64,000 bases of DNA from Hexactinellida sp. DTS-2022. Taxonomy: Eukaryota > Porifera > Hexactinellida. Numbering within the stretch: the stretch's first letter is position 1; the number at the start of each line of letters is the position of its first letter. The DNA lies in contig JAPNXP010000011.1 in the NCBI GenBank assembly GCA_028753945.1, positions 3,038,001-3,102,000 of the forward strand. Direction: 5' to 3'. This document shows, piece by piece, positions 23,414 to 57,014 of this stretch. The position numbers and the translations under genes were made by a program. The notes under the pieces were generated by a model. The model ran no database searches and was not told the DNA's origin. It worked only from the letters and a program-made list of their open reading frames with translations.

Positions 23414-23733
23414 CAGGGGCTTATCTAGGATTTTCGTCGTTGGCACTTTATTATGGATACATAAATTTCCGGCACCCAAAAGGTATTAGCCATGATACAT
23501 AATTAGTAAAATTCAATGATGCGGCACCATTTTAATTAGGTAAATTGCAACGGTGCACAAACAGTTGTTTATCCAAAAAGCATTTCTGGACCAGAAAATC
23601 TAGCAATACGCCCAGCACCTAATTAAGTGCCAACCCGGCACCTAAATTGAATCGCAATTCAAGCACTTTTTCACTACATCTGATGCCTGGCCGGCACCTA
23701 AAAGTGCCGGCCAGGCATCTAGATAAACCCCTG
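23414..23733. mobile_element. hAT MITE, 320 bp
   Basis: Ends CAGGGGCTTATCTAG and CTAGATAAACCCCTG; exact 8-bp duplication CCTACATC (23406-23413, 23734-23741). Contains GCCGGCCAGGCAT palindromic pieces near the right end. Non-coding. Confidence 0.9.
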
Positions 23734-26630: not shown

Positions 26631-26879
26631 CAGGGAATGAAAGGTTCACGAACGGACTGAATAAACCAAATTCAGTTCATTTCAAATTAACGCACGTTCA
26701 GTTCGTTCACGTTCACCTCCTAACTTCAACACCACCAGCGTTCGTTCAGTTCGTTCAACTGCCGTTCAGGCAACCGTTGACGTTCGTTCAGTTCGTCCAG
26801 CGTAAATGCCATCGAAGTCTTGCGTTCAGTTCGTTCAGTTCAAGTTCAATAAGTTCGTCCGTGAACCTTTCATTCCCTG
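26631..26879. mobile_element. hAT MITE rich in GTTCGTTCA motifs
   Basis: Ends CAGGGAATGAAAGGTTCACG and CGTGAACCTTTCATTCCCTG; exact 8-bp duplication GTTTGTAT (26623-26630, 26880-26887). A second member is at 48060-48617. The interior consists largely of GTTCAGTTCGTTCA repeats. Confidence 0.93.
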
Positions 26880-29285: not shown

Positions 29286-29549
29286 ATTACTTGGAATACC
29301 GTATTTATTCGAATAGTAGCCAAGGCGATTATTGTTTTTTAGGCCATTTTTTTACCAATAATTTTGTTACTTTTCGAGAATATCACATGGTGATACAATT
29401 TATTTAATAGAATCGGTTGATAATTATAATCGTATTGTGACTAATATTAGATAAAGAAATTTACTCAGGGTACCGGAAGTAAATTTGTATTTGCTAATAT
29501 TGGGGGGCTATTATTGGAGGTAGGCGATTATTCGAATAGGGGCTACTAC
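29286..29549. mobile_element. MITE-like inverted repeat
   Basis: CCGTATTTATTCGAATAG at the left and CTATTCGAATAATCGCC (reverse complement of the right end) form inverted ends around AT-rich sequence. No clean target duplication is recognised. Confidence 0.5.
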
Positions 29550-30308
29550 ATGCGGTCAAATACATATGTATTTGTATTTGAGAGTATTTAAATACTTTTT
29601 TTCAAGTATGTGTACTGTATTTGTATTTTAACTTTATCTAAATGAGAGTTTGTATTTATATTTAAACACTTTCAAAAAGTATTTAAAATATTCAAATACT
29701 ATATAAAAACAATCAAATATTAATGATACACCCATGATAAGTTCATGTTATCATATTGAGGTAGATGAATACAATTTTACCCAACATTACAGTGGCGGCG
29801 CGAGGGGGCGCAGCCAACTCGCTTATCTGATATAGGAGTACTTAATGATAATACGGAAATGCTATACGCCCTGGACAGGGAGTCCATAGCTAGCTGTTTG
29901 CTGAGATGCCCCACCGTTATTATTATAGGACAGATTATTTAACTAAGTTTGTCATTAAAAATGTCGATTTTGGTTTGAATGTGAATTTTTGGAATGTTTA
30001 CAACTATTGGGTTTGCCCCTCCAATGCATTGGTCTGCCCCTCTTTCGCACCCCCCCCCTCCCCCCGAAGTAGGCTGTGCTGGCGCCGCCACTGCCCAACA
30101 ACAATGGCAAAGTCCCACTCATTGATATTCATATCCATTATTGTTCTAATATTTAGAGACGGAGACGGGGGGATAGAGAATTTTTTTAATATAATAACCA
30201 TGGCCTGATCCAGGCGAATCGTAATAGAAAATGTTGAATTAGCATCGGTTTTTGCGAATTGTATTTGTATTTGTAATTAAATACATTCCAAAGTATTTGT
30301 ATTTGTAT
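29550..30308. repeat. TATTTG-rich repeat with a hAT MITE; inversion edge
   Basis: AAATACAAATAC/GTATTTGTATTTG runs begin at 29555 (GGTCAAATAC) and return at 30238-30308. A GC-rich MITE, 29790-30093, separates them. The segment ends ATTTGTAT at 30301-30308, and its inverted twin ATTTGTAT lies at 39884-39891, beside the other MULE copy. The stretch looks like one half of a MITE whose other half is at 39817-39891. Confidence 0.6.
29790..30093. mobile_element. hAT-like MITE with GGCGGCGC ends
   Basis: Ends CAGTGGCGGCGCGAG and GCTGGCGCCGCCACTG, inverted; similar to the element at 7517-7890. The flanks show CCCAACA on both sides but not as an exact adjacent 8-mer. A C-rich run lies near 30050. Non-coding. 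Confidence 0.7.
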
Positions 30309-30999
30309 GTAGCGATTCATTTGTTCGAATTAGCATGTTGTCATTCGTTCGACAATATTTTCCAATGTTGTCATTTGTTCTAAATTATGAGGTTGTTATT
30401 TTCGTAGTTAAAGTACTATCTGGCTACTTACGGAAATGTTTAATTAATTAAAATAGGTTATTAAGGCAATGATTATGTAACAAAGATTATGATAAATTAA
30501 TACTATATCATATTGTTAATTAGTAAATATCTGAAAAAGTATATTCTATTGGGGATTGACAAATGGGACATGTTTGCTCTAATTCTTCAATAGTTTCCGT
30601 GCATCTTACACAGCAATTTGCGTGCTTGCATGGCATAAATACACACGTTGTCTCTCTCAATCTTAGACAAACAGCACATAGATTTCTATTTTCCGAAGAT
30701 GAACTTTGTGTACATTCAATTAAATTATCATCAGCCTCATCATCAGAACTATAAGGATATGTGTTTATGTTATTTAGAGAACCCACTGTGTGACTAATAG
30801 CTCGGATATATTCCATTGGTGTGTACGAACCCCCAATAAGTTTTTCTTTACATTTACTACGTCGATCTTCATTATCAATATTTTTCTTTTTTCTTTTCCT
30901 TGTGATTTGCAATCCTTCTTTCATTCGTGCCAATACATTATCGGTATCAATTATGATTTCATTAAGTGTATCCAAAAAGTTCCATATCCTAGGCTTGCA
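30309..30999 (-). mobile_element. MULE copy 1, 3' portion (RING end)
   Basis: About 690 bp nearly identical to 41253-41942 but inverted. It contains the terminal motif at 30309 (GTAGCG...CATTTGTTCGAATTAGC) and the C-terminal coding end. At 31000 it passes directly into satellite C. Only the last third of the element is here. Confidence 0.9.
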
Positions 31000-31000
31000 A
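30520..31000 (-). CDS. MULE transposase C-terminus joined to a RING finger (partial)
   Basis: The minus-strand frame reads CCKPRIWNFLDTLNEIIIDT, the tail of the transposase, straight into a basic linker (ITRKRKKKN), an acidic Ser-rich stretch and a C-terminal RING. The RING has CAVC, MPCKH, CCVRC and CPIC: C-x2-C, C-x-H, x3-C-x2-C, C-x2-C, as in IAP-type RINGs at the extreme C-terminus. The frame is open throughout and ends at a TAA at 30520. The 13 residues upstream of 31000 come from the satellite. IAP-type RINGs act as ubiquitin ligases; whether this one does is unknown. Confidence 0.8.
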
Positions 31001-33065
31001 CACTCACAAATAATCGATTTGAGAGTTTTTTGAGTCATATCAGCAAATATAGGTTCAGATGTTTTTAAGCTCTAAATGATTGTAAATGAACGAAGTTTCA
31101 ATTCCTGGGGCACTATCTGGACACTTTTGACTATAAGAAATTTTTGCATCAAAAGAAATAGCCAGAAACGTGTTTAAATTCACAAATTTAACAATTTAGG
31201 AGTTTTCTCCCATTCATTGCTCCAAAAATGTTTTTGATTGTTTTTGAGCTCTAAAATGGTTATAAATGAACGAAGTTCAATTCCTGGTGCACTATCTGGA
31301 CACTTTTCACTATAAAGAATCTTTGCATCAAATGTAATACACGGAAACGTGCTTAAGGACTTCGGCTATTTCTTTGGATAAAAAAAGTTCTTTATCGTCT
31401 AAAGTGTCCAGACAGTGCCGCAGAAATTGAACTTCGTTCATTTACATTCATTTGAGAGCTTAAAACAATAAAACCATCTTTTGTGCAAAGACAGTAAAAC
31501 TCACAAATTGCTATATTTTTGGTTTAAGGACGTTGCGGCTGTTACTTTTGTTACTAAAATTTTTATATCGTCGAAGGTTTCCACACAGTGCTTCAGAAAT
31601 TGAACTTCAATAATTTACATTCAATTATGAGCGTAAACAATAAAAACCATTTTTTGGTGCAATGATTGTCAAAAAACTCCCAATTTGATAAATCTGTGAA
31701 TTTAAGGACGTTTCCGGCTATTTCTTTTGAGAATTTTTTTAAAAAAAACGTCAAAAGTGTCCAGACAGTGCCCCAGAAATTGAAATTCGTTCATTTACAA
31801 TCATTTAAGAGCTTAAAAACATCTAAAAACATTTTTCGTTGCAATTACTGTAAAAAAACTCTGAAATTCGATAATTCGTGATTTTAATGACGTTTCCAGC
31901 TTTTTCCTTTGATGCAAATAATTCTTTACTGTCAAAAGTGTCCAGACAGTGCTCCAGTAATTGCATTTCGATAATTTACATTCATTTAAGAGCTTAAAAA
32001 CAATAAAACCATTTTTTGTTGCAATGTCTGTCAAAAAACTCTCAAATCGATAAATTCGTGAAATTTAGGACGTTAGCGCTAATACTCTTGATGCAAAAAT
32101 TCAGTATCGTCAAAAGTGTCCTGACAGTGCCTCAGAAATTGAACCTCGTTCATTTATATTCATATTAGAGCTTGAAAAGAGGAAAAAACATTTTTGGAGC
32201 AATCACTATCAAAAAACTCTGATATTCGCTAAATCGTTTATTTAGGGACGTTTCCAGCATTTTCTTTCGATGCAAATAATTCTTTAGCCTCAAAAGTGTC
32301 CAGCCGGTGATCAGAAATTGAACTTCGATCATTTACATTCATTTGAGAGCTTAAAAACAATAAAAACCATTTTCTGGTGCAATGACTGTCAAAAAACTCC
32401 CGAATTGATAAATTCGTGGTTTAAGGACGTTGCAGGCTGTTACTTTTAATGCTAAAAATTTTATATCGTCAAAGGTTTTCACACAGAGCACCAGAAATTG
32501 CACTTCAACAATTTACATTCAATTATGAGCGTAAAATAAAAACCATTTTTTGGTACAATGACTGTCAAAAAACTCCCAAATTGATAATTCGTGAATATAA
32601 GGTCGTTAGGGCTAATGCTCTTGATGCAAATAATTCTTTAGCGTCAAAATTGTCCAGACAGTGCCCCAGAAATTGAACTTCGGGCATTTCATTCATTTGA
32701 GAGCTTAAAAAAAATATAAACCATTTTTGGTGCATTGTCTGTCAAAAAACTCTCAAATCGATTTTTTCGTGAAATTAAGGACGTTAGGGCTAATACTCTT
32801 GACGCAAAAATTCAGTATCGTCATAAGTGTCCTGACAGTGCCTCAGAAATTGACCCTCGTTCATTTATAATCATTTTAGAGCTTGAAAAGAGGAAAAACC
32901 ATTTTTGGAGCAATTACTGTCAAAAAACTCTGAAATTCGATAAATCGTGAATTTTGGGACGTTTCCAGCATTTTCTTTTGATGCAAATAATTCTTTAGCT
33001 TCAAAAGTGTACAGCCGGTGACCAGAAATTGAACTTCGATCATTACATTCATTTGAGAGCTTAAC
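31000..33065. repeat. Satellite C, ~178-bp array (block 1)
   Basis: The motif GTGTCCAGACAGTGCC or a variant recurs at about 31404, 31578, 31758, 31938, 32117, 32297, 32473, 32652, 32828 and 33008, a period of 174-180 bp. The unit also carries TTCATTTACATTCATTTGAG, GAGCTTAAAAACA and AAATTGAACTTCGTTCATTT. The first units (to about 31345) are in opposite orientation to the rest. Short frames in it are not genes. Confidence 0.93.
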
Positions 33066-33321
33066 AGCCAATACTAGCTATTCAAATTCAATAATTGTAT
33101 CAGTAAAATTAAGGAAAAGGGACAAGCAAAGAAAGATATACTAAAAAATGTTTAAATTCAAATTGTATATCGTATTTACATAACAGTGAAATTTGAAACT
33201 AAATAATTCTATAATAATATTTCAATTATTGCATTGGTCAGCATCTAGCTGTTAATAGCTTGGATTTTGATTTGCTGTCAACAGCCAGTGGCTGTTAACA
33301 GCTTGGCTGTTTCCATCCCTG
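33066..33321. mobile_element. hAT terminus with GCTGTTAACAGC motifs (end R)
   Basis: The stretch contains GTGGCTGTTAACAGCTTGGC and ends TTCCATCCCTG at 33321, followed by TATATGAG. It matches the other end at 43661-43843 (CAGATTCACCACCCCTG), also read as a right end. The two belong to one element whose halves are now in opposite orientation. Confidence 0.75.
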
Positions 33322-33339
33322 TATATGAGTGATATACAC

Positions 33340-33532
33340 CAGGGGTTTATCCAGGAGCGCGCCATACGCCTAGAGGCGTCTAAATTGGGCAATGTTTGCG
33401 TTTAGGAGCGCGAAAACTGCTGAAACTCCACATAGAGTAATACAAAACTAACCTTTTAGGCGTACAAAATTCATACTCTAGTGACCTTAGGGCAATTAGG
33501 AGCGTTCAATTTGAGTCCTGTATAATACCCTG
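33340..33532. mobile_element. hAT MITE, 193 bp
   Basis: Starts CAGGGGTTTATCCAGGAG and ends GTATAATACCCTG; exact 8-bp duplication ATATACAC (33332-33339, 33533-33540). GCGCGCC-type motifs near the left end. Non-coding. Confidence 0.83.
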
Positions 33533-33771
33533 ATATACACGTTTAGTAAACCCAACAATGATATATATGTCAGATATAATTTTCACTCAAAATTTCAATT
33601 TACCGATTATATGTTCAGACTTCACTTCTTCACTTGACAGCTCCTCTTGAATGAACATTCAAGTGTGATATATCTATCTATCACTACAAGATATATGATA
33701 AAAATATCACCTAAATCCAAGTGATATGATACTGATTGATATATCTCGATTTGAAAAAAAATAGGCATTAT

Positions 33772-36700
33772 CATAGCCTACTCTATATAAGGCCTACCAT
33801 CAAATGTACCATGGATGAAGTAGTGCACGATGAGAAAGTGATAAACACAGTTCAATGTTTTCAACTTCATTTAGAAATTAATCTGTTATAATAAATTAAT
33901 CTAGTAAATTAATAGATTTTCTCTATTGAGTCTTTATTGGTCACTTAATAACAATGATAAGAATACATAAAGAATAATGTGGGTTCAAATAACAATAATA
34001 ATAACAATAATAATAATAGAAGAGTAGCCTTCTGGAGTATTTCATTAATGTGAGAACTTCTTCAATTTCGCTTTTCTATTCCTTTAGATGCAACAGCGGA
34101 GTTATAATTTTTAACCTTGTAGCTAGTAAACAGTTGGCGCAAGTGAAAATAAGATTTTTTAGGATAGTCAAAATAGAGACACCACAAGAAATGCAACTCG
34201 ATTTAGCAATCGCATCAGTCTCTTCTAAGAATATCAACATTACTTCCACAATAATTTTTCTGGATGATCCTTGCATCAATATCGCCAACAAGTTGTCTTT
34301 GCTTTCAATTGCAATTAACGTCTTCCATAAAGTTACTTTAGATTCGAGGATAAACTCAGATGGATACTTTAGGCCACCACGGTCAGTTAATTGCAAAAGC
34401 CTGAACTCGGGTTGTGAATCTTCATCAAAGATAAAGTATTTGTCAATGGTCAAAAGATCAATGCAAACATGACAGGGCTGAGTTTTTTAAATATATTTAT
34501 GTACTGCATATCCAGCAATAAAAGCTAATGACTTAAGAGTCTGTAAACAACATTCAATGGAAGTTAGATCATCAATTTCATCCCAGACTAGTTGGACATC
34601 GATTTCATCGCCATTATTCGTATCAAGGGATGAGTATGAATCAATAAATGTCTGAATTGAATATAAGCCACAATCTTGTTGTGAAGCAAAAATCTTTAAT
34701 ATGTTGGATAACTTGAGGCGGCGTTCAGTTTCAAGGATTTCAAGATACGAGATATGATAGTTTGCACCTGACATCATACGATATAGGCCAAAGTGATGTT
34801 CCAATGGATCTGTCTGTAAAAAGGATGTCAAAAGATTGTTAAATCCACAAAATCCAGTTAAATGGTTAGTTATCTGAGGCAATACAGTTCAAGCATGCTT
34901 AAAACTGGTAAACGTTTGTTTACTTAACTTTCCTACATTTCCTGGCAAGGACAGCCAAGTCTCTAACCAAATAACAACACAAGCTAAGAATGAAAATCGT
35001 TCGTCTTGGTATGTTAGAGGTCTTGAGATATCATCATTTAAACCTTTACCTTTAAGTGGGGAATTTATGTTGAACAGTTTCAAAATTTGAAGAAACTTTC
35101 AACAAAGTCGTGTGTATTGTTTCGGTCTTCTTGGTTACGGAGTTCATTCTGTAACTTCAGAGCTGGAACAGTTAATTCGTTGAATACTTTCAAAACAAGT
35201 TTCACATTTTGGCGCTCAATAGCAGAAGGATAACAAGCTTTGATAGTCAAGCTAGGAGCTAACTTAGCTAATGATTCTTTCTCTAAATTATAGAGGAGAG
35301 GCACATCACTAAAAGATGCAGAGTAAACTTGAACAGGAAACACACAGTAATCCAGCTTAATGTTCTGAAAGTTGGTAAAGTGAAAAGTTTTCCTAATATC
35401 TTTCTGATTCAACCAGTTGTTTCGAATACTTTTCAAAATGTGCACAAAGTCAAAAGTAACATGGAGTTTTCTTTTATTATCAGAAGGGTGTGGTACACTA
35501 GTCTCTAACTGTTTAGTTGGAGAATATAACCTGAATAAGTTCACGTTTAAAGGGTAATTGTCGGTAGAAATAATCAGTACTTTCAAACCGCAAGATTCGA
35601 TATCCAAAATACAACACTTAATTATAGGAAAAAGGTATTCAGCAGATATAGATGTGCAAGGTATCAAACGAGAAATAGAGGACCATTTTTTGTGTCAAAT
35701 AGAAACCATGATAGCAAATACAGTTCTTGTGGGGTTTTCAGGGGATAAGTTAGGACCAAATATTTTCCCACCCTTATATGAGATATCAGACTTAACGTGG
35801 ATCTCATCCATCTGAATAATTACATTCTTCTCTTGAGAACTAAAATAAGAAGTTACCTGGCTAAGGTAAGTACAAGAGTCGTTTTCCAACCCAAAAGAAG
35901 GGTACAACTTTTCTAGTGTGTGAACATGTGGAAAAGAAATGCATTCTGAACTTTGGAGAAATTTGTAGCTAGCAGGAGAAACCAGATACGTTTTTATGGC
36001 CAGAATTTGTGTAATAACATTATATTTCCTTCTCTTCTTGTAAATACCCACATTCTCTAGTTGGCCAAGAATAAATTGTAATCTTGGCAAATCGGAACAG
36101 TTTGATTCTGTTTCATCACTATCTAATAGATTACATATGGCCTCCTCAATATGTTCTTTTGCTTAGAGATATGGTGAGGATGTTTCTTCTGAGGGGAAGA
36201 GCTAAGTTTCAGAGTAATCTCTGTAAACATCGTTTCAATTTGTCAGATATCAGTGATAGAGATAAGTGAGAGAGAAATGGACTCCCCATATATATATCCG
36301 TTCACAGATAAAAAAGAATTTATTTCAAGAGAAACATCTGCACAAATATTATGATTTTCCATCATAGGCAAAAATCTCACACAATTATCTGTTTGAATCC
36401 AAACTAACCAGTCAGTTGGGATTGTTATCAAAGCTAACTTATCTCGTATTTCTTGTATACAACCAACACGAAACTTCTCCATTTCTGTATTCTCTGATCT
36501 CAAGCTGAGATTAGTTGCTTGGTTCAATAAATCTTCCTCTTTGGAGTAGTAAGAGAACCGAGTTCGTTTGATTCTAATTGAAGGGGTAGAGGAATAATAA
36601 GACGGACAACCAGGAAGGAGAGAGGGGACAGCGAAAGGATTTAATTTGGGTCTTCCACGCGGGACCTCATAGGATGTGCCATCTCCTCTGGGTACCGTGT

Positions 36701-37170
36701 GAAAATATTGAATATCTTCCTTCTGAAAATGCTTAGCACACACATACACCATTTTGAGGTCAGAAATATCCTCACGATGGAGAGCAGGTATCCAGGCATG
36801 TCGTAACTCAGGTGGACCATCTGGAAGTTTAAAAACTGGGACGCGCTCTTCTGGGGTATAATTACCACTACAACCAGGGGAAAAACAGTTCGGCATTGAG
36901 AATAATTAAATATCTAACTATTTATTAAAAAGAAACAAAGTCAAATATAGTACTAGGAAGTGCTTAAAATATCGGTGGAAGGAGAATTGTATTAATTAAT
37001 TACTAAAAATTAACAAAAATCACTAACAAGTTGATCCAACTATTTTTAAAATATTTCTAACTGTAGAGATAAATGTAAATAACTATGGGTCAATAATAAT
37101 ATCGTACACTACTTCATCCTTGGTGCAAAATATCAGCTTTGATGGTAGGCCTTAAATAGAGTAGGCTATG
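33772..37170 (-). mobile_element. P-type DNA transposon, 3.4 kb, nearly complete
   Basis: The terminal inverted repeats are about 33 bp with one mismatch, starting CATAGCCTACTCTAT at 33772 and ending inverted at 37170. A further inverted block (GGATGAAGTAGTG) lies 15-25 bp inward. GCATTAT flanks both sides exactly (33765-33771, 37171-37177), so the duplication is 7 bp, or 8 bp with one mismatch. The single gene is on the minus strand. This copy resembles the transposase at 3.7-6.6 kb in protein but has entirely different ends. Confidence 0.93.
34076..36896 (-). pseudogene. P/THAP9-type transposase, few breaks
   Basis: Starts at 36896 with MPNCFSPGCSGNY. The THAP finger is complete: C-x4-C, W in LRHAWIPALH, VCAKHF giving C-x2-H, and the closing AVPSLLP. 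The catalytic block NVIIQMDEIHVKSDISYKGG is at about 35810-35870. Then come STDNYPLNVNLF, TSFLQTDPLEHHFGLYR near 34800 and the C-terminal DRGGLKYPSEFI to 34076. Breaks seen are shifts of frame between 36243 and 36090 and near 35083, and stop codons near 35696, 34888 and 34486. There is no intron at the place where the copy at 4.6 kb has one. The family cuts and rejoins its own ends and is related to human THAP9. Confidence 0.9.
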
Positions 37171-37218
37171 GCATTATATATACAGTATATCATATATAAT
37201 GATATATTCAAAGCCCTG

Positions 37219-37834
37219 TGTACAGGGGAAAATTGGGGGGCCGTACAGGGTTTTGACTTTAGTAGGTTGGAACTTGGCAGGTATGCAATATACCAGAGAT
37301 TGAAAACACTAAATACTTAAAAGAAAATTGTTAAAATTAATTTTTCGTCTGCTTTACGCTAGAGCATATCTATCTATTCTTTGGTGCAATTTCAATAATA
37401 AACCAGGGGAGGCATACCTGGGGCGGCAGGTACGGCGAGCGCCGTACCACTTTTCAGAGTGGTCCGGCGTCGCCGCACTTAATTTTCAAAAGATTTCCAA
37501 ATATCGGGGGCTTTATCACACAATGTTAAAATTAAATGGACTGAACCGCTAAAAACAAGTATAAATTCATGTGTGATACAAAGGATACGGATGCTACTAT
37601 CCTCAATTGATAGGTTAACGGTGATACAAACACTGGAACAATGACGATTAAATATTTGATGACGATTTTGTATGTTGGTAGTCCGTCGTCGCCGTACTAC
37701 TTAGAATAAATAAATTTTCCGCCGCACCAATTTTGAAAAGGATGTGCCGCGCCTGATAAATCCCTCCCAGTTTTAGTAGAAATAGGCTAAAACGCTGTAT
37801 GGAGCACTTCGCGGGACGGGTTATTAAATGAGGG
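37219..37834. other. Intergenic, MITE remnants
   Basis: No coding signal. GC-rich fragments such as GCGCCGTACCACTTTTCAGA and GCCGCACCAATTTTGAAAA, with CAGGGGAGGCATACCTGG at 37408, suggest one or two decayed MITEs. No matching ends or duplication could be fixed. Confidence 0.5.
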
Positions 37835-39012
37835 TTGCGGGACCCGCAATCCGCATTTAATCGATCGTCAGCACGAGTCAACGCTGCAGTAGATTTATCC
37901 AAGGGCTACGAGGCTATTTTGGCAGCGTTCTGCGAAATTACTAACGATATCAATCACACCGCTATTTCCCGGGTAGAGACGCGAGCTTTACGGGATCGTA
38001 TGGATCAGCTTGAAATGGCGATTTTAACCTATGTATGGTTTGAAATTCTGTCGCAGTTCAACAAGATCAGCATCACCCTGCAGACGGTTGGCATAGTTTG
38101 AACACAGATATTGGTTTGTTGAAGAGTTTGATCGCTTCGTACAGGAGAAGCTTGACAAGTTCGACTATTTTGAGAGTTGTGGCGTGGAGCGAGTTGGACA
38201 TGAAGAATATAAGGCAGAGAAGAAGCGTGTGCGCAAGCGGAATGTTCGATGGGACCTTGGAACTGGTGAGGAAGCAGTAGTGCAGCCTCGAGAACGCTTT
38301 CGAATAGAAATTATTACGATCATGGACAGCATGCTGGACGCGCTGCAGCATCGGCCGAATGCCTACGAAGCTATATCCGCCAAATTCAGCTTCCTCAGCA
38401 ACCTCAACACACCTTCAAGTAACGATATAACAATTGTAGCTGAGAGGCTGGTTCGCGCATATCCAGAAGATTTAGAGGAAGATCTCTCTGTTGACCTTAT
38501 TCAGTTCGCTAGTTTTGTGAAATCAACGCTGGTTCAGCAGACCTTAGCTTCTAAGGAACCAGATGTTAAAATTGGCAACGAGTTACGTTTGTTCCTCTTG
38601 CTCACAGAACTCAGCCTGGATCAGACTTTTCCGAACGTCGACATAAACCTCTGCATGATGATTCCTAACTGTGAAGGTGAGCGCTCATTTTCAAAGCTGT
38701 CTCGAATCAAAAACCAATTGCGATCGAGCATGGGCCAGGAACGGCTGGTCATGCTCACCCTTATGAGCATAGACCACGAGATGTTGCGCAAGCTTGATTT
38801 CAGCGAAGTGATTGATGAATTCGCAAAAGAAAAAGTCTCGCAAGAAGGCTATCTAAGTGAAGTTGTTTTGTTTCTGTAGTGTGAGATTTGTGGGATAAGT
38901 ATTGTGTGCTAATTTGATACTGAATGCTGTGGCATTGGTGGAATGTAAGATATATAGAGGTCCTGAAATTTTGTACAGCACCAGGGCCCAGATGACCGTT
39001 AATGCGGTCCTG
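37835..39012 (+). pseudogene. hAT transposase, ZMYM1-like, 3' half
   Basis: Two plus-strand frames, 37835-38101 and 38184-38879, give RVNAAVDLSKGYEAILAAFC, MDQLEMAILTYVWFEILSQF, then SFLSNLN and the dimerisation block CEGERSFSKLSRIKNQLRSS ending LDFSEVIDEFAKEK. This is the C-terminal half of hAT transposases of the ZMYM1 type. One shift of frame lies at about 38100-38180. The 5' half is missing. The element's end, AATGCGGTCCTG, is at 39012. Base composition is clearly more GC-rich than the surroundings, which suggests a later arrival than the satellites around it. Confidence 0.85.
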
Positions 39013-39891
39013 GTTAGGTGACCCACGTCGCGTTTTCTCGCGCACTTGAAAAATCTCTTAAATTCAAGCTATTGTGATTAGCTTCAATTTAAAAACTTAA
39101 TAACATTTGCAAGGATATATTTCAGCAATATATCTACAAAATAAGATTTGTCCGAACGCAGTTAATTCCAGTGATATAAATTTTGTTATTTCTATAAATA
39201 TCGACCTATTATCAAGGCTTCTAGAATTGAAATAGATTATATATAAGCCTATACGTAATTGAAAACTGAGTTTAATTTTCAATGACTAGTATTGAATGAA
39301 ATATTTACAATTATATCCTGTGGCGTGACCTACATTAAATAAGGCCTGTTGCGTAGAATTCTGAGATCGTAGAATCCTGAGATTCCAGTACTAAAAAACC
39401 ATGGACGCAATAGTAGTATATAATTCTGAGATTCACCATAGAATCGTGAGATTTAGAGTAAAATCTCGAGATTCAGTTGTGGTTGGATAATATTTGTATG
39501 TTACATACTATGAAATTGGGTATTACAGTGGACCTCTATAAGTAGGGATGTCAATATTTTTCAATTATCATTGGAATACACCTCTATAAGTGGGGAATTA
39601 CCACTAACTGGGAAATGGGTGGATATCAGAATGTTCGCCGGCCCAACTTCAGCCACTTAGAAGTATCAATGTACAATGTAAACTCGAAATATTCCCATTA
39701 TGCATTATATAGTTAAGACTTAAACCCTTCTAATGTGTAATTAAGGAAGATATAATCAATGATTCATTGTAAATATTAACAATACCTATCGTATATACTC
39801 TAATAATAGCCCAGACATGGGGTCAAATACTTTGAAAAGTATTTAATGACAAATACAAATACATGTGAAATTATTAAATACAAATACAAAT
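39013..39891. other. Intergenic; possible pogo-type end; TATTTG repeat half
   Basis: No gene. At 39528 TACAGTGGACCTCTATAAG looks like one end of a pogo-type element, but no partner end was found. TAGAATTCTGAGAT-type short repeats occur at 39355-39480. At 39817-39891 an AAATACAAATAC-rich stretch ends at the MULE; it is the inverted twin of 30238-30308. Confidence 0.55.
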
Positions 39892-41942
39892 GGGAGCGCT
39901 GCATTTGTTCGAATTAGCATGTTGTCATTTGTTCGAAATTTTGAGGTTGTCAATTGTTCGACTAGTATTTTCTTATGTTATCATTTGTTCGACAATATTT
40001 TCCTATGTTGTCATTTGTTCGACTGGTCTTCCCCTTTGTCACTCTTAATTCTAGACACCTCATTGATATACAATGAAAGGCTTCCTACTTAATTAATGAT
40101 TTGCTATCACACTTTATACCCCTTTTGATCACGGGATATATATATACAACACAATACCACACTGAATTAATAAGTATGGAGTACACATTAAATACTTACA
40201 AACAGAATCGTGGATCAATTTACACAACTTCTGACGTTCACAAATACCTAGTCACGAAAAGAAAGGATATTGATATCTATTTGAAATGTGTTCTATTCCG
40301 CAAAGGCCGCAAATCAAAAGCAAATCTCAATCAGGACATAAACAAAATAAGTTTATCTATCCAACATAACCATGGGCTTGATATGTATAATATGATATCT
40401 ACTCAATAAAGAATAAATGTAATGAAGCAGCAAAATCTTCAGGAGAGAATCTCGAAATATTTTCAATGACCAGACAAGAATAGTTCCGGCAGGCAGAAAA
40501 ATTTCTTTTGTGAATTTCGAATCGACTATGTATCGTGCAAGAAGGAACCTTCAACCAAAGATACCCCAAAACGCATTCGAACTTGAGTTCACTCTTCCAG
40601 GAACTCAATATGGAATTCATTTTAAAGGGTCAGTTGTTATTGGCAATGATCGAGCGTTTATATTTTTCTCAAATGAATTAATCCCCCTTTTGGTTGATGT
40701 CTCAGAAATATGTTTTGATGGGACCTTTTTTACAGTGCTAATCCAGTTTACCAACTATGGACAATATTTATTGTCGTAAATCAGCACATCATCCCAGCAA
40801 TACATTGCCTCTTGAAAAGGAAAATCTGAGCTGTTGTATGATAATCTATTATTAAAAATTCGGGAAATTGTTCCTCAATTTCAACCACAAAACTCAATGT
40901 CGGATTGGGAACAAGCAGCACGAAATGCAGTGAAACAAAACTTCAATGGCATAAAACTCCAAGGTTGCTGGTTCCATTATACACAGCGAATTTCACAATT
41001 ATGTGCGTATAATGGCTCTACCTTTCTTACCACCAGATGTAATACAATCAACATACAATGAAATCGACCATCAGTCTCTCAATCTGGATGAGGCTACAAT
41101 GGTCAATGTCATCAAATTTAAAACATATATTCAAAGAAGGTGGATTAATCAAATACCCGCTAACGAGTTATCCATCTTTCACCAGAAAATGGCTACTAAC
41201 AACGGATCTGAGAGCTACCATGGCAGATTAAAATCATTAATAAAATGTTGCAAGCCTAGGATATGGAACTTTTTGGATACACTTAATGAAATCATAATTG
41301 ATACCGATAATGATTTGGCATGAATCAAAGAAGGATTGCAAATCACAAGGAAAAGAAAAAAGAAAAATATTGATAATGAAGATCGACGTAGTAAATGTAA
41401 AGAAAAACTTATTGGGGGTTCGTACACACCAATGGAATATATCCGAGCTATTAGTCACACAGTGGGTTCTCTAAATAACATAAACACAGATCCTTATAGT
41501 TCTGATGATGAGGCTGATGATAATTTAATTGAATGTACACAAAGTTCATCTTCGGAAAATAGAAATCTATGTGCTGTTTGTCTAAGATTGAGAGAGACAA
41601 CGTGTGTATTTATGCCATGCAAGCACGCAAATTGCTGTGTAAGATGCACGGAAACTGTTGAAGAATTAGAGCAAACATGTCCCATTTGTCAATCCCCAAT
41701 AGAATATACTTTTTCAGATATTTACTAATTAACAATATGATATAGTATTAATTTATCATAATCTTTGTTACATAATCATTGCCTTAATAACCTATTTTAA
41801 TTAATTAAATATTTCCGTAAGTAGCCAGATAGTACTTTAACTACGAAAATAACAACCTCATAATTTAGAACAAATGACAACATAGGAAAATATTGTCGAA
41901 CAAATGACAACATGCTAATTCGAATAAATGAAGGCGCTACAT
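39892..41942 (+). mobile_element. MULE copy 2, full length, with RING-bearing transposase
   Basis: Ends GGGAGCGCTGCATTTGTTCG and, inverted, GTAGCGCCTTCATTTATTCG. Several copies of ATGTTGTCATTTGTTCGA lie just inside the ends. The interior holds all parts of a MULE transposase plus a RING. Flanking sequence on the left (ATTTGTAT in reverse, 39884-39891) matches, not the right flank here, but the flank of copy 1 at 30301-30308, evidence of an inversion between the two copies. Confidence 0.9.
40176..41728 (+). pseudogene. MULE transposase with FLYWCH-like and RING domains, broken
   Basis: Start ATG at 40176 (MEYTLNTYKQN), as in the copy at 51.7 kb. Parts in order: a FLYWCH-like zinc finger (YLKCVLFRKG...HNHG; its second Cys is replaced); the first catalytic Asp in ICFDGTFFTV (about 40710); SDWEQAARNAVKQNF with LQGCWFHYTQRI, the MULE C-x-FHY motif; ATNNGSESYHGRLKSLI with the catalytic Glu (about 41210); then linker and RING (41560-41700: CAVC, MPCKH, CCVRC, CPIC). 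The reading is split over about five frames with a stop at 41323; copy 1 is open across that last point. Mutator-like transposases cut and paste with 9-bp duplications. Confidence 0.9.
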
Positions 41943-43660
41943 TTGAAACTTTGTTCATTACTATGATTTAAGAGCTTAAAAGCATCTAAATCCTTTTTTG
42001 CTTCAATGACTCAGAAAACACTCAAATTGTCAATTTGTGAATTTAAGCACGTTTACTACTATTTCTTTTGATGCAAAATTTCTGTATAATAAAAGGGGTC
42101 CAGATAGTGCCCCATGAATTGAACTTCGTTCATTTACAATCATTTAAGAGCTTAAGGACTTCTAAAACCTTTTTGTTGTTTCATTGAAAGTAAAAAAACT
42201 CTCAAATTCGATAATTCGTGAATTTAAGGACGTTTACAGCAATTACTTATGATGCAAAAAATTCATTATATACGAAAGTGTACCAAACGTGCCCCAGAAA
42301 TTGAACTTCGTTCATTTATATTCATTTTAGAGCTTAAAAACAATCAAAACCATTTTTGGAGCAATACTGGGAGAAAAAACCCAAATTGTTAAATTGTGAA
42401 TATAAGCACGTTTACGGCTAATAAATTTTAATGGTAAAAATTCTTTAAAGTCAAAGGTGTCTAGATAATGCACCAGGAATTGAACTTCTTTCATTTACAA
42501 TCATTTAAGAGATTAATAACATCTAAAACCTTTTTTTGCTGCAATGACTATCAAAATATTCTCGAAACGATAATTGTGAATTTGAGGATGTTTCCAGCTA
42601 TTTCTTTTGATACAAATTATTCTTTATCGTCAAAGGTGTCCAGATAGTGCCCAAGGAATTGAAATTCGTTCATTTATAATCATTTTAGAGCTTCAAAACA
42701 ATTAAAACCATTTTTGGAGCAATTACTGGGAGAAAAGACCAAAATTGTTAAATTTGTGAATTTAAGCACGTTTCCACCTATTTCTTCTGATGCAAAAATT
42801 CTTTATAGTCAAAAGTCTCCAGATAGAACCCAGGAATTAAAATTCGTTCATTTATAATAATTTTAGAGCTTAAAAACAATCAAAACCATTTAAGTAGCAA
42901 TGACTGTCAAAAAACTATCAATTTGTATAATTTGTCACGTTTTTTGACGTCTCCGGATTTTCTTTTTATGCAAATAATTCTTTATCGTCAAAGTTGTCCA
43001 GACAGTGCCCCAGAAATTGAAATTCTTCATTTACATTCATTTAAATTTACGAATTTATCGATTTGATAATTTTTTGACAGTCATTGCAACAAAATATGGT
43101 TTTTATCGTTTTTAAGCTCTCAAATGAATGTAAATGTTCGAAGTTGAATTTCTGGGGCACTGTCTGGACACTTTTGACGATAGTGAATTTTTTAATTATA
43201 TGAAATAGCCGAAAAGTCCTTTAATTCAGAGATTTATCAATTTGTTAGTTTTTTGACATTCATTGCACAAAAAAATGGTTTTTCTTGTTTTTATCTCTTA
43301 AATGAATGTAAATTATCGAAATGCAATTTCTGGATCACTATCTGGACACTTTTGACAGTAAAGAATTATTTGCATAAAAAGAAAAAGCTGGAAACGTCCT
43401 TAAATTCACGAATTATCGAATTTCAGAGTTTTTGACAGTCATTGCAACCAATAAAGTTTTAGATGTTTTTAAGCTCTTAAATTGTTGTAAATGAACGAAT
43501 TTAATTTTCTGGGGCTCTGTCTGGACACTTTTGACGCTAAAGAATTATTGGCATCTAAGGAAATAGCCGGAAACGTCCTTAAATTTACAATTTTAACAAT
43601 TTGGGAGTTTTTTGTCTGTTATTGAACCAAAAATGGTTTTCTTGTTTTTAACAGCTCTCT
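41943..43660. repeat. Satellite C, ~178-bp array (block 2)
   Basis: Same unit as 31000-33065, about nine copies. Units to about 43080 read GAGCTTAAAA...; after that the orientation flips (TTTTAAGCTCTCAAATGAATG). It starts exactly where the MULE ends and runs into the GCTGTTAACAGC end at 43661. Confidence 0.9.
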
Positions 43661-43843
43661 TATTGGCTGTTAACAGCTCACATTGGCTGTTAACTGCTCA
43701 CATTGGCTGTTGACAGCTTAAATTGGCCTTAATTAACAACTTAAAGCGACTTAAACGCAGTTAAGGTTTAATGCCAATTGGGGACGAATACCTAGCTGTT
43801 AACAGCAAATAGTTAGCTGTTAACAGCAGATTCACCACCCCTG
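43661..43843. mobile_element. hAT terminus with GCTGTTAACAGC motifs (end L, inverted)
   Basis: Contains repeated GGCTGTTAACAGCTCACATT and TAGCTGTTAACAGC and ends CACCACCCCTG at 43843, followed by CTCATATA. That octamer is the exact reverse complement of TATATGAG after the other end at 33321. Confidence 0.75.
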
Positions 43844-43925
43844 CTCATATATCATTTGTGGATATGATATATATATCATTGATACATATCAGATATATAT
43901 CTGATATGATAAATTCAAAGCCCTG
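43844..43925. mobile_element. Other half of the GATAT-rich hAT MITE (X, inverted)
   Basis: Runs from CTCATATATCATTTG to AAATTCAAAGCCCTG at 43925. It carries the same terminus as 37218 and palindromic CAGATATATATCTG. Followed by CCTGTATA. Confidence 0.75.
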
Positions 43926-44545
43926 CCTGTATATTGACCAAAATCTTTGTAACCCCAAAGATTTTCTCGCTCTCAACGCTTGCTCGTTTAGGTATTCAAA
44001 ATACACTAAAACAGAAAGGAACACTATTCAAGCATAGCGCTATTAACTCAGCTTGCATTGCAAAGTTGTACTTTCGTGTAATTTATATTTGGAAACTTTG
44101 AAATAGGAACCGTAGGAATTCTAATGTAGACAATATCAGCCTTGTATTTTTTAATGACTATTTAAACTTTACTGAAAGCCCCTCTCTGGTCATTTGAGAA
44201 ATCGAGATTGGAATGTTTTTGACATTTCTCTAGGAGTCCTAGATGCACTGATAATTTCAATTAAATCGAATCAATAGTTTCAATGTTGTAGCATTTTGAA
44301 AATTCCTACCTAAATTGTCCTCATAGAGGTCTATTTTTATATACTATATTTGAATGGATTTGAAAATATCTTGGACTATTTAAATGCAATAACCTTTTAA
44401 CTGGCTATCCTATGTAGTATCATGTCATTATTAATATCGGTGTTAGACCTAAATTTAGCACTATAACAATGCCCAAATTTAAGATTCAGTAGTCCTATAT
44501 TTAAGTTTTCTATGAGTCAGCTAAAGGAATTCAGTATTACGCAAT
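43926..44545. other. Intergenic, nothing recognised
   Basis: AT-rich unique sequence without stop-free coding stretches, inverted ends or tandem repeats that I can see. Confidence 0.6.
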
Positions 44546-44553
44546 ATCCGGGA

Positions 44554-45247
44554 CAGTGATGTGCTCCGTTACTAAATCTTCCGTTACTCCGTTTCCGTTA
44601 CTTTATATCTCCCGTTACCGTTACTCCGTTATCGTTACTTTATTTGTTCCGTTACCGTTACTCCGTTACTGTTACTTTTTTTTCACCCGTTACTTTTACT
44701 CCGTTACCGTTACTTTATTTGTTCCGTTACCGTTACTTTTGTTTAGTTTGTCCGTTTACCTTTATTCAGTACAGTTCACCTTAATGTAACGGTAACTGAT
44801 TTGAAATAAAGTCGTACAGTCGAAATCGGATTATTTTGTCCAATTCTTTTCATGGATAATTCGACAAATAATCCGATAAGACAAATAAACCCGGTGTGAT
44901 ATCCATGCAAAATGGTATATATATCATAATTTTCCTCGAAAATTAGGACAAAATAGTCCGATAAACAAAATAATCCGATGACAAAATAATCCGATTTCGA
45001 CTGTAATGGCAATGGAATAAGTTTTTAATATAGTATCGGATACTGTGTTACGGTAAAGTAATGGTAAGAGTTATAACTGATTAAAGATAACGCTAACTGG
45101 TCAAAAGTAACGGATGCCCGTTCTATCGTTACCGTTCCTCGGCGATGCCCGTTTCCGTTACTTTTTTCCGTTACCGTTACTTGTCGACACCCGTTACCGT
45201 TACTTTTTCCGTTACCGTTACCGTTACTCCGTCGGAGCACATCACTG
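44554..45247. mobile_element. hAT MITE rich in CCGTTAC motifs
   Basis: Ends CAGTGATGTGCTCCGTTAC and GTCGGAGCACATCACTG; exact 8-bp duplication ATCCGGGA (44546-44553, 45248-45255). Both arms are built of CCGTTACCGTTACTCCGTTA-like repeats (and their inverse), giving short spurious frames. A pogo-type MITE lies inside. Confidence 0.92.
44817..45003. mobile_element. Pogo-type MITE, 187 bp
   Basis: Ends CAGTCGAAATCGGATTATTT and, inverted, AAATAATCCGATTTCGACTG; TA on both sides (44815-44816, 45004-45005). Internal GGACAAAATAGTCCGATAA repeats the end motif. Non-coding. Confidence 0.9.
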
Positions 45248-45313: not shown

Positions 45314-47730
45314 CAGGGTTGGGTTTTGTCCAGTCCAAAACTGGTTTTGGACGGACAGTGGACAAAACCCGGTTTAAACTGGACAAAACCGGTTTAAACC
45401 GGACAAAACTGGACAAAACTATTTTCATTGTTAGTGTTAAGGCTCGAACCGCACCATAATATCTACTTATGCTATTATGGTAGAGTACAACGTTTTCGTC
45501 TGATCTCTCAATGAAAATGTATCACTTATAGGATACAAAGCAAGTATATATTCTTCACACTAATAACAGTGAAGTGATTTTGATATAGTATATCAGTTTA
45601 ACTTCTACACTTGATCTGCTGTTTCTTTTTGATTAATTAATAATCACCACACGGGTTCACACACACACACACATGTATTATAGGTATTCGTCTTTGTTAT
45701 TCGTCCTTGTGTTATTCATCTTAATTTACTATATACGATTATACGTATACTCATTAGTATATTTAACTAACAATATTTCGGAAAATAAGCTCAAAAATTC
45801 TCTAAATTCTATATTTACTATTACGTATTTAAATTTCACAGAATTTGTTTCAATGAGTCAAGGAGGAAGACCCAATGACTCAGTGTGGAAATTTTTCATA
45901 ACGATCGAAGAAGGAGGGAAACTAACAAAAGCCAAATGTATTAAATGCGATAGTTTTGTTAGTGCAAAACCTTGTAGGCTTAGAGCTCACCTTGCGAAAT
46001 GTAGTTCAAAGAATTCTGATGAAATTCTTTCTGTATCACAAATTACAGATGCAGTAATTACAAGTAAAGATTATTTTATTCCACCAGCAAAACGTCCATG
46101 CAATACGAATATTCAACCCAAAATGAATAGCTTCACTATTAAAACAAGTTCTCAAGAAAAAGTTGCACTTGATGATCAAATTGGTCGTTTGTTTTATGCT
46201 TGTAATTTACCTTTTAACCTTGCTGAACATGTAATATTCAAGCAGACTATCTCAATGCTTCGACCAGGTTATGTTCCTCCTTCTAGAAAAGATTTAGCCG
46301 GTCCACTTCTTGAAAAGATTTACGAAGAGGTAACGAAAACTGCAGCCTCACAATTAGAGGGGAAAAATGTTACTTTAGTCCAAGATGGATGGAGCGATAT
46401 ACATCATACTCCTGTTATTGCACACAGTGTGCACACAGGTGAAAAATCTTACTTTGTTAAATCTATAGACACTGGTTCAAATAAATAAACAGCTACATAT
46501 TGTGCCTCATTGGCAATTGAAGCATCGTTAGAAGCAACTCAAAAGTTTGGCTGCAAGGTTGTCGCAGTTGTAACTGATAATGAGAATAAAATGCAGTCCA
46601 TGCGGTCTAAGTTGAAATCAAGTGATAATTCCCTTACTGTTTATGGTTGTGCTTCTCATTTCTTAAACTTGCTTGGTAAGGACGTAACGCCTTCACAAGT
46701 ATTAGTCCGTGTGACAGAAATAAACAAATATTTTCGCAATCATCATGGACCAGGAGCCCTTCTGGCTAATCAGAAAGGATCAATTAAACCACAATTACCT
46801 GTTGTTACACGCTGGAACAGTCAGCTAGAGTGTATCCAAACGTATTTAACAAATAGACCTTTCCTACTAATTATTTTGGCACAGAATGAAGATGTAATCG
46901 AAACTCCTATTGCTAACCTCATTAACAATATAGGTCTCTATCGTGAAGCGAAATATCTTCATGATCAGCTTCAACCAATTGCACTATCTCTGGATAAATT
47001 GCAGGGTGACGAATCCAATATTGCAGATTCATGTGAAGAGTGGTTAAATTTACTAGAGTTAGTGCAACTTACCAATCATCACACCAAGATTCAACAACGT
47101 TTTCATCAAGCTATCACACCAATTCACTATCTAGCTAATATTCTACATCCAAAATACATGGGACAGAGATTGACATGTGAGCAACAACAAGAAGCTAGGA
47201 GCATACTTGTTGAACAAAATGCGTCTCTATTACCACAACTCTACCATTTCAAGCAAAGACTGCACCATTTCCGGCATCATTATTTACATGCACTCATAGT
47301 TTAAAGCCCACAACGTGGTGGAGAACAGTCCAGGCATCTAAAAATTTTGTCTCGGATGATCTCTGTAACTTGGCCATTAAATTACTTAGCTTACCATCAA
47401 GTTCGGCATCAATTGAAAGAATATTTTCAAATTTTGGAATCATCCAAACTAAAATAAGAAATAGACTCGGACTGGAGAAAACAGCAAAGCTTGTAGCTTG
47501 TTATAGAGCACTGAGGGGATGCCAAGAACTAGAGTGGTAGTTACAGATATATACTTAATATTTCATTAGTAATTTAGAGATTTTTGATTAAATAACATAT
47601 TTTTCGTTCACTAATTAGGTTTTGTCCAGTTTCGTCCAGTTTCGTCCACTCATGAGGTTTTGTCCAGGACGGTTTAAACCAGGTTTTAACCACTAGGTTT
47701 TAACCACCCGGACGAAACCTGCCAACCCTG
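45314..47730 (+). mobile_element. Autonomous-type hAT transposon, 2.4 kb, nearly intact
   Basis: Ends CAGGGTTGGGTTTTGTCCAG and CTGCCAACCCTG; exact 8-bp duplication CTCAAAAC (45306-45313, 47731-47738). Subterminal repeats of GGTTTAAAC and TTTTGTCCAG flank a single transposase gene on both sides, the usual binding-site layout. It is the best-preserved hAT here and so one of the younger insertions. Confidence 0.93.
45853..47540 (+). pseudogene. hAT transposase with BED finger; one stop and one frameshift
   Basis: The start at 45853 (MSQGGRPNDSVWKFF) opens the BED zinc finger: W-x-F-F, KCIKC and LRAHLAKC give C-x2-C and H-x4-C. An open frame upstream to 45673 is probably untranslated. Then FYACNLPFNLAEH, MLRPGYVPPSRKDL, VTLVQDGWSD (the first catalytic Asp region), VVTDNENKM, GCASHFLNLLGKD, VVTRWNSQLEC, and the dimerisation block SSSASIERIFSNFGIIQTKI near 47400-47460. 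A TAA at 46486-46488 interrupts the frame and a shift occurs near 47300. All hAT parts are otherwise present. Cut-and-paste transposase of BED-type hATs. Confidence 0.92.
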
Positions 47731-48059: not shown

Positions 48060-48617
48060 CAGGGAATGAAAGGTTCACGAACGAACTTATTGAACTTGAA
48101 CTGAACGAACTGAACGCAGGGCTTTTAAGGAATTCACGGTGAACGAACGCCAACGGTTTCCGGACGGCAATTGAACGAACTGAACGAACTGGATTGAACG
48201 GATTGAACGAACTGAACTGAACGTATTAAACTGAATAAAGATAAATTATAAATATTGATTTATTATATATAATAGGTGACTGCAAAAAAAGTGGTAATTC
48301 CGGACATCCCTAGTGGACTCATGTCTCTTAGCTTTAATTCTAGCTTCTTAACCTGAATTTCAATAACAGTATGGAGGATAGAACTGTCTATCATAAACGG
48401 AATAGTTCGACCCACTCACTGTACACTGAACGAACTGAACTAAACGAATTGAACGGATTGAACGAACTGAGCGAACTGAATGAACATAATTGAACGGATT
48501 GAACGAACGCTAGAGGAGCTGAAGTTAGGAGGTGAACTTGAACGAACTGAACGTGCGTCAATTTGAGATGAACTGAATTACGTCAATTCTGTCCGTTCGT
48601 GAACCTTTCATTCCCTG
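48060..48617. mobile_element. hAT MITE rich in GAACGAACT motifs (second copy)
   Basis: Ends CAGGGAATGAAAGGTTCACG and CGTGAACCTTTCATTCCCTG, as at 26631-26879. The flanks ATTTGGAT and ATTGGGAT agree at 7 of 8. Tandem GAACGAACTGAACG occupies both arms; about 150 bp in the centre (48250-48420) is unrelated and may be another insertion. Confidence 0.88.
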
Positions 48618-56347: not shown

Positions 56348-56514
56348 CAGGCCCGGCGGAAGCTCGTGAGAGGTGGGGCGGCCTTGTGAGATGTGGGGCA
56401 GCCTTGTATAATAGTATTACGAACCACGCCCGCGAAATTTCAAAGTACCATACAAATCACAGAAAAAGTGGGGCGGCCCAGGCCGCCCCAACCGCCCCTC
56501 TTCCGCCGGCCCTG
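56348..56514. mobile_element. hAT MITE, 167 bp
   Basis: Starts CAGGCCCGGCGGAAG and ends CTTCCGCCGGCCCTG; exact 8-bp duplication CCCAGTAT (56340-56347, 56515-56522). Inner GGGGCGGCC repeats. Non-coding. Confidence 0.93.
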
Positions 56515-56829: not shown

Positions 56830-57014
56830 CAGTGTTTTTTTTAAGGATTTGCTTAGAGGGCCTTACCAACAATTAGAGGCCCTCACCCCAACAATTAGAG
56901 GCCCTCACTCTACATTTCATGATATTGAGTACTTAGCACGTTAAAAATTAGAGGCCCATTGATAAAAATTAGAAGACCATTTTGGGCCTCTAATTTGCCT
57001 TAAAAAAAACACTG
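56830..57014. mobile_element. hAT MITE, 185 bp
   Basis: Starts CAGTGTTTTTTTTAAGGA and ends CTTAAAAAAAACACTG; exact 8-bp duplication TTCATGGA (56822-56829, 57015-57022). AATTAGAGGCCC is repeated five times inside in direct or inverse form. Confidence 0.93.

What the first reader, a model, noticed from the sequence alone, without database searches (positions are those of the whole stretch)
30309..41942. An ~11-kb inversion between two MULE copies, proven by three split target-site duplications
MULE copy 1 (minus strand, 30309-30999) and copy 2 (plus strand, 39892-41942) share a nearly identical 0.7-kb end. Neither has matching flanks on its own two sides. Three octamers match only if the segment between them is turned round: (a) ATTTGTAT at 30301-30308 and its inverse at 39884-39891, each beside a MULE terminus; (b) TATATGAG at 33322-33329 and its exact inverse CTCATATA at 43844-43851, each after a GCTGTTAACAGC-type hAT end; (c) TGTACAGG at 37219-37226 and CCTGTATA at 43926-43933 (7 of 8 when inverted), each after the AAGCCCTG end of the hAT MITE that hosts (b). 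The TATTTG and GATAT repeats at the edges are also halved and inverted. Ectopic recombination between inverted MULE copies explains all of these with one event.
Basis: seen in the sequence. Interest (0 to 1): 0.86.

Follow-up and report, generated by a model that had tools for sequence, protein, structure and literature searches.

The report
Small inversion between two transposon copies
About 11 kb of this eukaryotic DNA has been flipped, most likely by recombination between two facing copies of one jumping gene, because the insertion scars of several older jumping genes fit together again only when the piece is turned back; this kind of event is already known from fruit flies.

Summary
Of 15.7 million same-handed end pairs, only four would be completed by an inversion; (b) and (c) are two of them. 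I add a fourth split element, d (ends ~29548 and ~39813, flanks 7/8), which would enclose the split MULE. Corrections: (c) is not a hAT MITE but a P-superfamily element with a THAP domain; M2 ends at 41940; duplication (a) is 8 bp in a TATTTG repeat, whereas a related in-place MULE has 9. The duplications confine the breaks to 30309-33321 and 39892-43843. The best inverted homology there is the 695-bp, 98.3% MULE end, so MULE-MULE ectopic recombination is the best explanation. It is not proven: no crossover is resolvable, and aberrant MULE transposition, breaks at TTAA sites in the satellite, and misassembly remain open. Known kind of event (Drosophila Galileo); modest interest.

The parts
29548..30308 (+). 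element d, left part (hAT-like; GGTCAAATAC end); flank GGCTACTA at 29540-29547
   Evidence: boundaries set by eye, terminus has lost about 4 bases
30301..30308 (+). half (a) of the split MULE target duplication, ATTTGTAT
30309..31002 (-). M1: MULE right end, truncated at 31002, joined to satellite
   Evidence: 98.3% to 41246-41940
31003..33321 (.). element b, one arm: satellite A (31004-31352, minus), satellite B (31353-33064, plus), GCTGTTAACAGC repeats, terminus CCATCCCTG at 33321
33322..33329 (+). half of split duplication (b), TATATGAG
33330..37218 (-). element c (P superfamily), larger part with THAP transposase pieces; terminus at 37218
33340..33532 (.). small CAGGGGTTTATC-ended element nested in c, in place, duplication ATATACAC
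   Evidence: read by eye; its ends fall below the threshold of the scan
37219..37226 (+). half of split duplication (c), TGTACAGG
39813..39891 (-). element d, right part; flank TAATAGCC before it
39884..39891 (-). half (a) of the split MULE target duplication, ATACAAAT
39892..41940 (+). M2: MULE with both termini; MULE and RING domains, broken frames
41941..43843 (.). element b, other arm: satellite A (about 41941-42890, plus), B-like (about 42890-43042, plus), B (43043-43652, minus), GCTGTTAACAGC repeats, terminus CCACCCCTG at 43843
   Evidence: the A/B change near 42890 is by eye
43844..43851 (-). half of split duplication (b), CTCATATA
43852..43925 (-). element c, separated end (..TCAAAGCCCTG)
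43926..43933 (-). half of split duplication (c), CCTGTATA

Best explanation
A chromosomal micro-inversion of roughly 10-11 kb. Before it, the locus read: element d (hAT-like) with a complete MULE (copy F) inside it, flanked by ATTTGTAT on both sides; then other DNA; then a P-superfamily element (c) with element b inside it (duplication CTCATATA), b being a CAGGG-ended, satellite-filled transposon that carried a left-truncated 0.7-kb MULE copy (G) facing F. Homologous (ectopic) recombination between the right ends of F and G turned the DNA between them round. The duplications of F, b, c and d were thereby split between the two breakpoints, and both MULEs became recombinants: M1 keeps F's right flank but is joined to b's satellite; M2 keeps F's left end and flank and now ends in b's satellite. 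Shown: split flanks, same-handed ends, near-identical inverted repeats at both breakpoints. Inferred: that these are scars of one inversion (strong); that the exchange was homologous and in the MULE tract (moderate).
For: Four families (MULE, b, c, d) have partner ends split, flanks matching 8/8, 8/8, 7/8, 7/8, in the orientation that a single inversion predicts. Undoing it adds b and c to the 9 in-place elements and loses none; b and c are 2 of only 4 qualifying pairs among 15.7 million. In exact-string searches the opposite-handed ends of c (CAGGGCTTTGA), b (CAGGGATGG, CAGGGGTGG) and d (GTATTTGACC) do not occur on the plus strand of the window. Controls keep their duplications in place: the 9 elements (8 with 8/8, 1 with 7/8) and MULE3 with 9/9. 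Satellite on M1's truncated side resembles that on M2's right side (mean 0.806) slightly more than the B arrays (0.780, 0.782), as expected if G sat in one A block.
Against: No reads, allele or outgroup: no genome held; two viral-contig scans gave nothing. The 10 M1/M2 difference events give p = 0.24, 0.12 and 0.03 for three post-hoc clustering statistics, so no crossover or conversion tract is resolved. The MULE duplication is 8 bp in a TATTTG repeat, while MULE3 has 9. Copy G must also have lost its left end and about 76 bp of satellite (phase 177 to 75). Two satellite orientation switches at TTAA are left unexplained. The A/B satellite difference is small (A-A 0.80, A-B 0.78).
Confidence: 0.55

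Rival explanations
1. Hybrid-element or one-ended insertion: a single MULE in d, present on two sister chromatids, used ends from both copies to insert into b's satellite, inverting the DNA between; M1 later lost (or never had) its left part.
For: Needs one MULE insertion instead of two. M2's right terminus joins satellite exactly at the MULE end (41940|41941). The Galileo authors state that this model gives an outcome strikingly similar to ectopic recombination except that the copies are identical rather than chimeric (PMC2775673 section 10 part 1); M1 and M2 are 98.3% identical.
Against: The diagnostic new duplication on M1's left side is missing. Copy G with an intact right terminus explains the exact junction equally well. 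No call shows this behaviour for a MULE.
Confidence: 0.15
2. Breaks at TTAA sites in the satellite: b originally held only the continuous B array; d held a compound MULE-satellite-MULE transposon; the flip joined TTAA to TTAA at 31353-31356 and 43041-43044 with loss of about 76 bp.
For: Removing the block between the two switches, with one TTAA, makes the B array continuous to the base; both switches lie on TTAA. All split duplications are equally satisfied.
Against: Requires a compound transposon with a duplicated right end and satellite inside d, and both breaks in related satellite of two different elements. A separate insertion of an A block at TTAA explains the same joins.
Confidence: 0.12
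3. Assembly artefact: the chromosome has the uninverted order and the assembler flipped the segment between 0.7-kb inverted MULE ends; or the sample is heterozygous for the inversion.
For: The MULE ends are near-identical (98.3%) inverted repeats with exact runs up to 167 bp, and the uninverted order is the one with whole transposons.
Against: The window has no N. 12 differing columns would let long reads tell the copies apart.
Confidence: 0.14
4. Chance octamers beside unrelated solo transposon ends, no inversion.
For: (a) lies in a TATTTG repeat, (c) and d match 7 of 8 only, and 2 of the 4 pairs look like chance.
Against: b and c share family-specific CAGGG ends, are nested, and need the same flip; all-against-all comparison of nine ends gives at least 7 of 8 only for the four same-family pairs.
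Confidence: 0.04

Closest known systems
Galileo-generated inversions of Drosophila buzzatii (2z3; also 2j, 2q7), PMC2775673 (abstract, passages and section 10 part 1 seen)
   Same: Two inverted DNA-transposon copies at the breakpoints, exchanged target duplications, other transposons nested there.
   Different: There the agent is a P-superfamily element, and uninverted chromosomes and reference copies showed chimerism. Here the agent is a MULE, one copy is truncated, the segment is about 11 kb, and the evidence comes from bystander elements b, c, d cut by the flip, with no relative to compare.
Alternative (reversed-ends) transposition inversions of maize Ac/fAc, PMC8225341 (passages seen)
   Same: Inversion between two copies of one DNA transposon.
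   Different: Those leave new matching 8-bp duplications at the inversion junctions; here old duplications are split and a new one cannot be seen.
Tetris, a foldback-type element with internal ~220-bp tandem repeats in Drosophila virilis, PMC4079207 (abstract and outline seen)
   Same: Element b is likewise an apparently non-autonomous transposon filled with ~179-bp satellite.
   Different: b's ends are short, and in the undone order the B arrays of its two arms run the same way instead of as inverted repeats.
Inversions with arrays of hAT-derived elements at breakpoints, PMC12368964 (search listing and three short passages seen)
   Same: Inverted DNA-transposon repeats at inversion breakpoints.
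   Different: Long tandem hAT-derived insertions, per the passages seen; no MULE or Mutator is mentioned in the main text.

Membership tests
Transposon-mediated inversion by ectopic recombination | two homologous copies in opposite orientation at the breakpoints | tested here: met
   M1/M2 ends, 695 bp, 98.3%, inverted
Transposon-mediated inversion by ectopic recombination | target duplications exchanged between breakpoints | tested here: met
   MULE F ATTTGTAT split 8/8; for copy G only one flank survives, so its half of the exchange cannot be seen
Transposon-mediated inversion by ectopic recombination | both copies chimeric against other genomic copies | not testable with these tools
   no genome held; difference pattern inconclusive
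Transposon-mediated inversion by ectopic recombination | uninverted arrangement found in an allele or relative | not testable with these tools
   no eukaryotic collection offered
Hybrid element insertion | copies identical at origin; new target duplication at the new junctions | tested here: inconclusive
   98.3% identical; M1's left end is missing
MULE (Mutator-like) for M1/M2 | MULE transposase domain | tested here: inconclusive
   PF10551 in one of the four M2 pieces sent, E 3.6e-5, 24.5 bits, below the curated cut-off 27.6
MULE (Mutator-like) for M1/M2 | terminal inverted repeats and 8-11-bp target duplication (length range recalled) | tested here: met
   M2 termini align with each other and with MULE3; MULE3 has 9/9 GTTTATTAT in place; M2's own duplication, 8 bp, is split
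P superfamily for element c | THAP domain and P-type transposase | tested here: met
   THAP PF05485 1.2e-11. TNP-like matches in c itself are below threshold (PF21787 E 0.05-0.07, PF21788 0.13, no better than unrelated families there), but a c piece is 48% identical over 101 aa to the protein at 4668-5129, which scores PF21787 3.4e-12
P superfamily for element c | 8-bp target duplication (recalled) | tested here: met
   7 of 8, only after undoing the inversion
   about 3.8 kb without its inserts; THAP transposase
piggyBac for the satellite A block | TTAA duplication with matching terminal inverted repeats (recalled) | tested here: not met
   TTAA at both ends, but the ends are plain satellite with no visible inverted repeat (by eye)

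The most novel reading that the evidence does not exclude
The MULE's own transposase made the inversion: hybrid-element or one-ended insertion of a single MULE into a neighbouring satellite-bearing transposon, i.e. a natural alternative-transposition inversion by a Mutator-like element, legible from the split scars of bystander transposons.
Probability: 0.15. Interest if true: 0.5.

Novelty: new member of a known kind. Interest (0 to 1): 0.36.

Why it matters
It is a worked example of reading a rearrangement, and which order is the derived one, from a single sequence: target duplications of elements older than the event act as built-in markers, so no outgroup is needed (if the assembly is right). 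It suggests MULEs as agents of small inversions in a eukaryote, beside the Galileo/P and hAT cases. In two paper searches aimed at MULE/Mutator-like inversions (4 papers listed; 4 listed, one of them the Galileo paper), no listed title or abstract opening describes such a case; apart from the Galileo paper I read none of them, so this is not a claim of absence from print. The scan for same-handed ends that an inversion would complete could be run genome-wide.

Tried and rejected
Own-genome search: none held. Viral-contig scans with a satellite pattern and with the MULE RING protein: nothing related. Rfam at gathering thresholds and tRNA scan of the window: nothing. PDB sequence search with one piece of c: nothing. 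Paper searches; four papers opened, in part.

Crossover mapping inside the 0.7-kb repeat: 10 difference events (two adjacent substitutions, and one indel with its neighbour, merged from 12 columns); p = 0.24, 0.12, 0.03, statistics chosen after looking. Inconclusive.

Random-inversion control: the first version was faulty, because elements turned round were counted as new. Corrected: of 300 random inversions 77 gained one pair and 23 two, and 69 lost one. One search lists them: 121 of the 123 gained pairs are the four pairs (b 35, c 26 plus 1 shortened at a breakpoint, 43019/49674 30, 52433/61960 29) and 21 of the 23 double gains are b with c; 2 gains are other chance pairs. So many flips over part of this region would join b and c; the control does not fix the breakpoints, and the two chance pairs are gained about as often as b and c. 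What singles b and c out is their family-like ends, their nesting and the agreement with a and d.

Rejected: 'hAT MITE' for c (THAP transposase); piggyBac for the TTAA-flanked satellite block (no suitable ends); simple in-place inversion of the satellite block inside b (leaves a junction out of phase, 1 to 103); a 9-bp reading of duplication (a) (only 8 match).
Full report
WHAT WAS CLAIMED. An ~11-kb inversion between two MULE copies, read from three target-site duplications whose halves match only when the segment between them is turned round.

THE OBSERVATION. The octamers are at the stated coordinates: (a) 8/8, (b) 8/8, (c) 7/8 after inversion. The MULE ends 30309-31002 and 41246-41940 are inverted and 98.3% identical over 695 bp. 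Two random octamers of this window agree 8/8 with frequency 6e-5 and at least 7/8 with 8e-4. (a) taken alone is weaker than (b): both its flanks are TATTTG repeats, and ATTTGTAT occurs 17 times on the two strands.

AN ANNOTATION-FREE TEST. I scanned the window for CA...TG elements of 80 bp to 16 kb with a 9-bp terminal inverted repeat and an 8-bp flanking repeat (at least 16 of 17 positions, simple repeats left out). Nine are found in place: 7517-7890, 13290-14447, 23414-23733, 26631-26879, 44554-45247, 45314-47730, 48060-48617, 56348-56514 and 56830-57014; eight have 8/8 duplications and one 7/8. After undoing the inversion (breaks set at an arbitrary homologous point of the MULE repeat, 30640/41608) the nine remain and two are added, b and c. 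Twenty Markov sequences of equal length gave five false elements in all. The converse scan, for ends of the same hand that would form an element with a duplication if one were inverted, examined 15,687,021 pairs and returned four: b, c, and two pairs that I take for chance. Among 300 random inversions, 100 gained at least one pair; 121 of the 123 gains are these same four pairs, and 21 of 23 double gains are b with c. This control therefore does not single out one pair of breakpoints; it shows that b and c are completed together by flips over this region.

A FOURTH SPLIT ELEMENT. GGTCAAATAC occurs twice on the plus strand (29554 and 39821) and GTATTTGACC not at all. In the undone order they are the two ends of one AT-rich, hAT-like element (d) with the MULE inside it; the flanks match 7 of 8. 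Its boundaries were set by eye and the left terminus has lost about four bases, so it is supporting rather than independent proof, and it did not pass the scan.

WHAT THE ELEMENTS ARE. c is not a hAT MITE. Its minus-strand frames begin with a THAP domain (PF05485, 1.2e-11). TNP-like matches in its other pieces are below threshold and no better than unrelated families, but one piece is 48% identical over 101 aa to the protein at 4668-5129, which scores PF21787 at 3.4e-12. I place it in the P superfamily, about 3.8 kb long without its inserts, cut by the inversion so that one terminus is at 37218 and the other at 43925. b is an apparently non-autonomous CAGGG(A/G)TGG-ended element with GCTGTTAACAGC palindromes and ~179-bp satellite. 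M2 has a MULE domain match (PF10551, 3.6e-5, 24.5 bits against a cut-off of 27.6, one of the four M2 pieces sent) and a RING finger (3.5e-10), with broken frames. A relative, MULE3 (51270-53223), keeps a 9/9 duplication in place. A 193-bp element nested in c (33340-33532) keeps its duplication ATATACAC (by eye).

WHERE THE BREAKS LIE. Together a, b, c and d allow a left break between 30309 and 33321 and a right break between 39892 and 43843 (inference). The best inverted homology between these intervals is the MULE end, with exact runs of 167, 162, 152, 73 and 67 bp; satellite offers at most 35 bp of exact match, at 76.5-82.9% in the 11 satellite rows printed. Recombination in the MULE tract is therefore favoured.

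THE SATELLITE COMPLICATION. The array changes orientation at 31353 and 43042, both at TTAA. If the block between them (in the undone order: 31352 to 31004, the MULE piece, 41941 to 43040) is removed with one TTAA, the B array runs on to the base, as in uninterrupted monomers. Most of the block is a second subfamily, A; the difference is small (mean identity A-A 0.80, B-B 0.81, A-B 0.78; six diagnostic columns). Across the MULE piece the phase jumps from 177 to 75, i.e. about 76 bp are missing. Either an A block entered b's B array at TTAA before a MULE landed in it, or the TTAA sites are themselves the inversion breakpoints. The second reading needs a compound MULE-satellite-MULE transposon in d; I rank it lower but cannot exclude it.

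RECOMBINATION OR TRANSPOSITION. The Galileo paper states that hybrid-element insertion gives an outcome strikingly similar to ectopic recombination, distinguished by whether the copies are chimeric (PMC2775673, section 10 part 1). Here M1 lacks its left end and no other close copy is at hand, so chimerism cannot be tested; the 10 difference events give p = 0.24, 0.12 and 0.03. Reversed-ends transposition as in maize leaves new matching duplications at the junctions (PMC8225341, passages); M2's right flank is ATTTGAAA, and the partner site is lost.

ARTEFACT. A 0.7-kb inverted repeat is a place where an assembler can flip a segment, and the undone order is the one with whole transposons. No reads, allele or relative could be examined. 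I give this 0.14.

VERDICT. Observation confirmed and extended; an inversion strongly supported for the sequence as given; MULE-MULE ectopic recombination the best mechanism, about 0.55 overall. The kind of event is known; the neat part is that older insertions serve as markers. The organism is a eukaryote, probably an animal, judged from the THAP, FLYWCH/MULE and hAT content (inference; no call identifies it).

Noticed in passing
31353-31356 and 43041-43044: Satellite orientation switches, both on TTAA; without the block between them the B array is continuous to the base. Looks like a TTAA-duplicating insertion of satellite into satellite without piggyBac-like ends.
   Followed up: partly
51270-53223: Second MULE-family element (FLYWCH match below cut-off, RING-like piece) with a 9/9 target duplication GTTTATTAT and ~51-bp tandem repeats near its right end.
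   Followed up: partly
4013-5967: Another P-superfamily transposase (PF21787 3.4e-12; PF21788 below cut-off), related to element c.
   Followed up: partly
29790-30093: hAT-like CAGTGGCGGCG...GCCGCCACTG element inside d; CCCAACA stands on both sides but offset by 2 bp at the left, so its duplication looks damaged.
   Followed up: no
26631-26879 and 48060-48617: Two members of one CAGGGAATGAAA-ended family, with 8/8 and 7/8 duplications.
   Followed up: no
10174-15471: Long degenerate tandem repeats with open frames of FRSIRPVQVHSS-like peptides, interrupted by an element at 13290-14447 with duplication CCATTGAG.
   Followed up: no
1-3051 and 7000-8015: A ~78-bp tandem repeat shared by two places; an element at 7517-7890 with duplication TTTATGAA sits in the second.
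   Followed up: no
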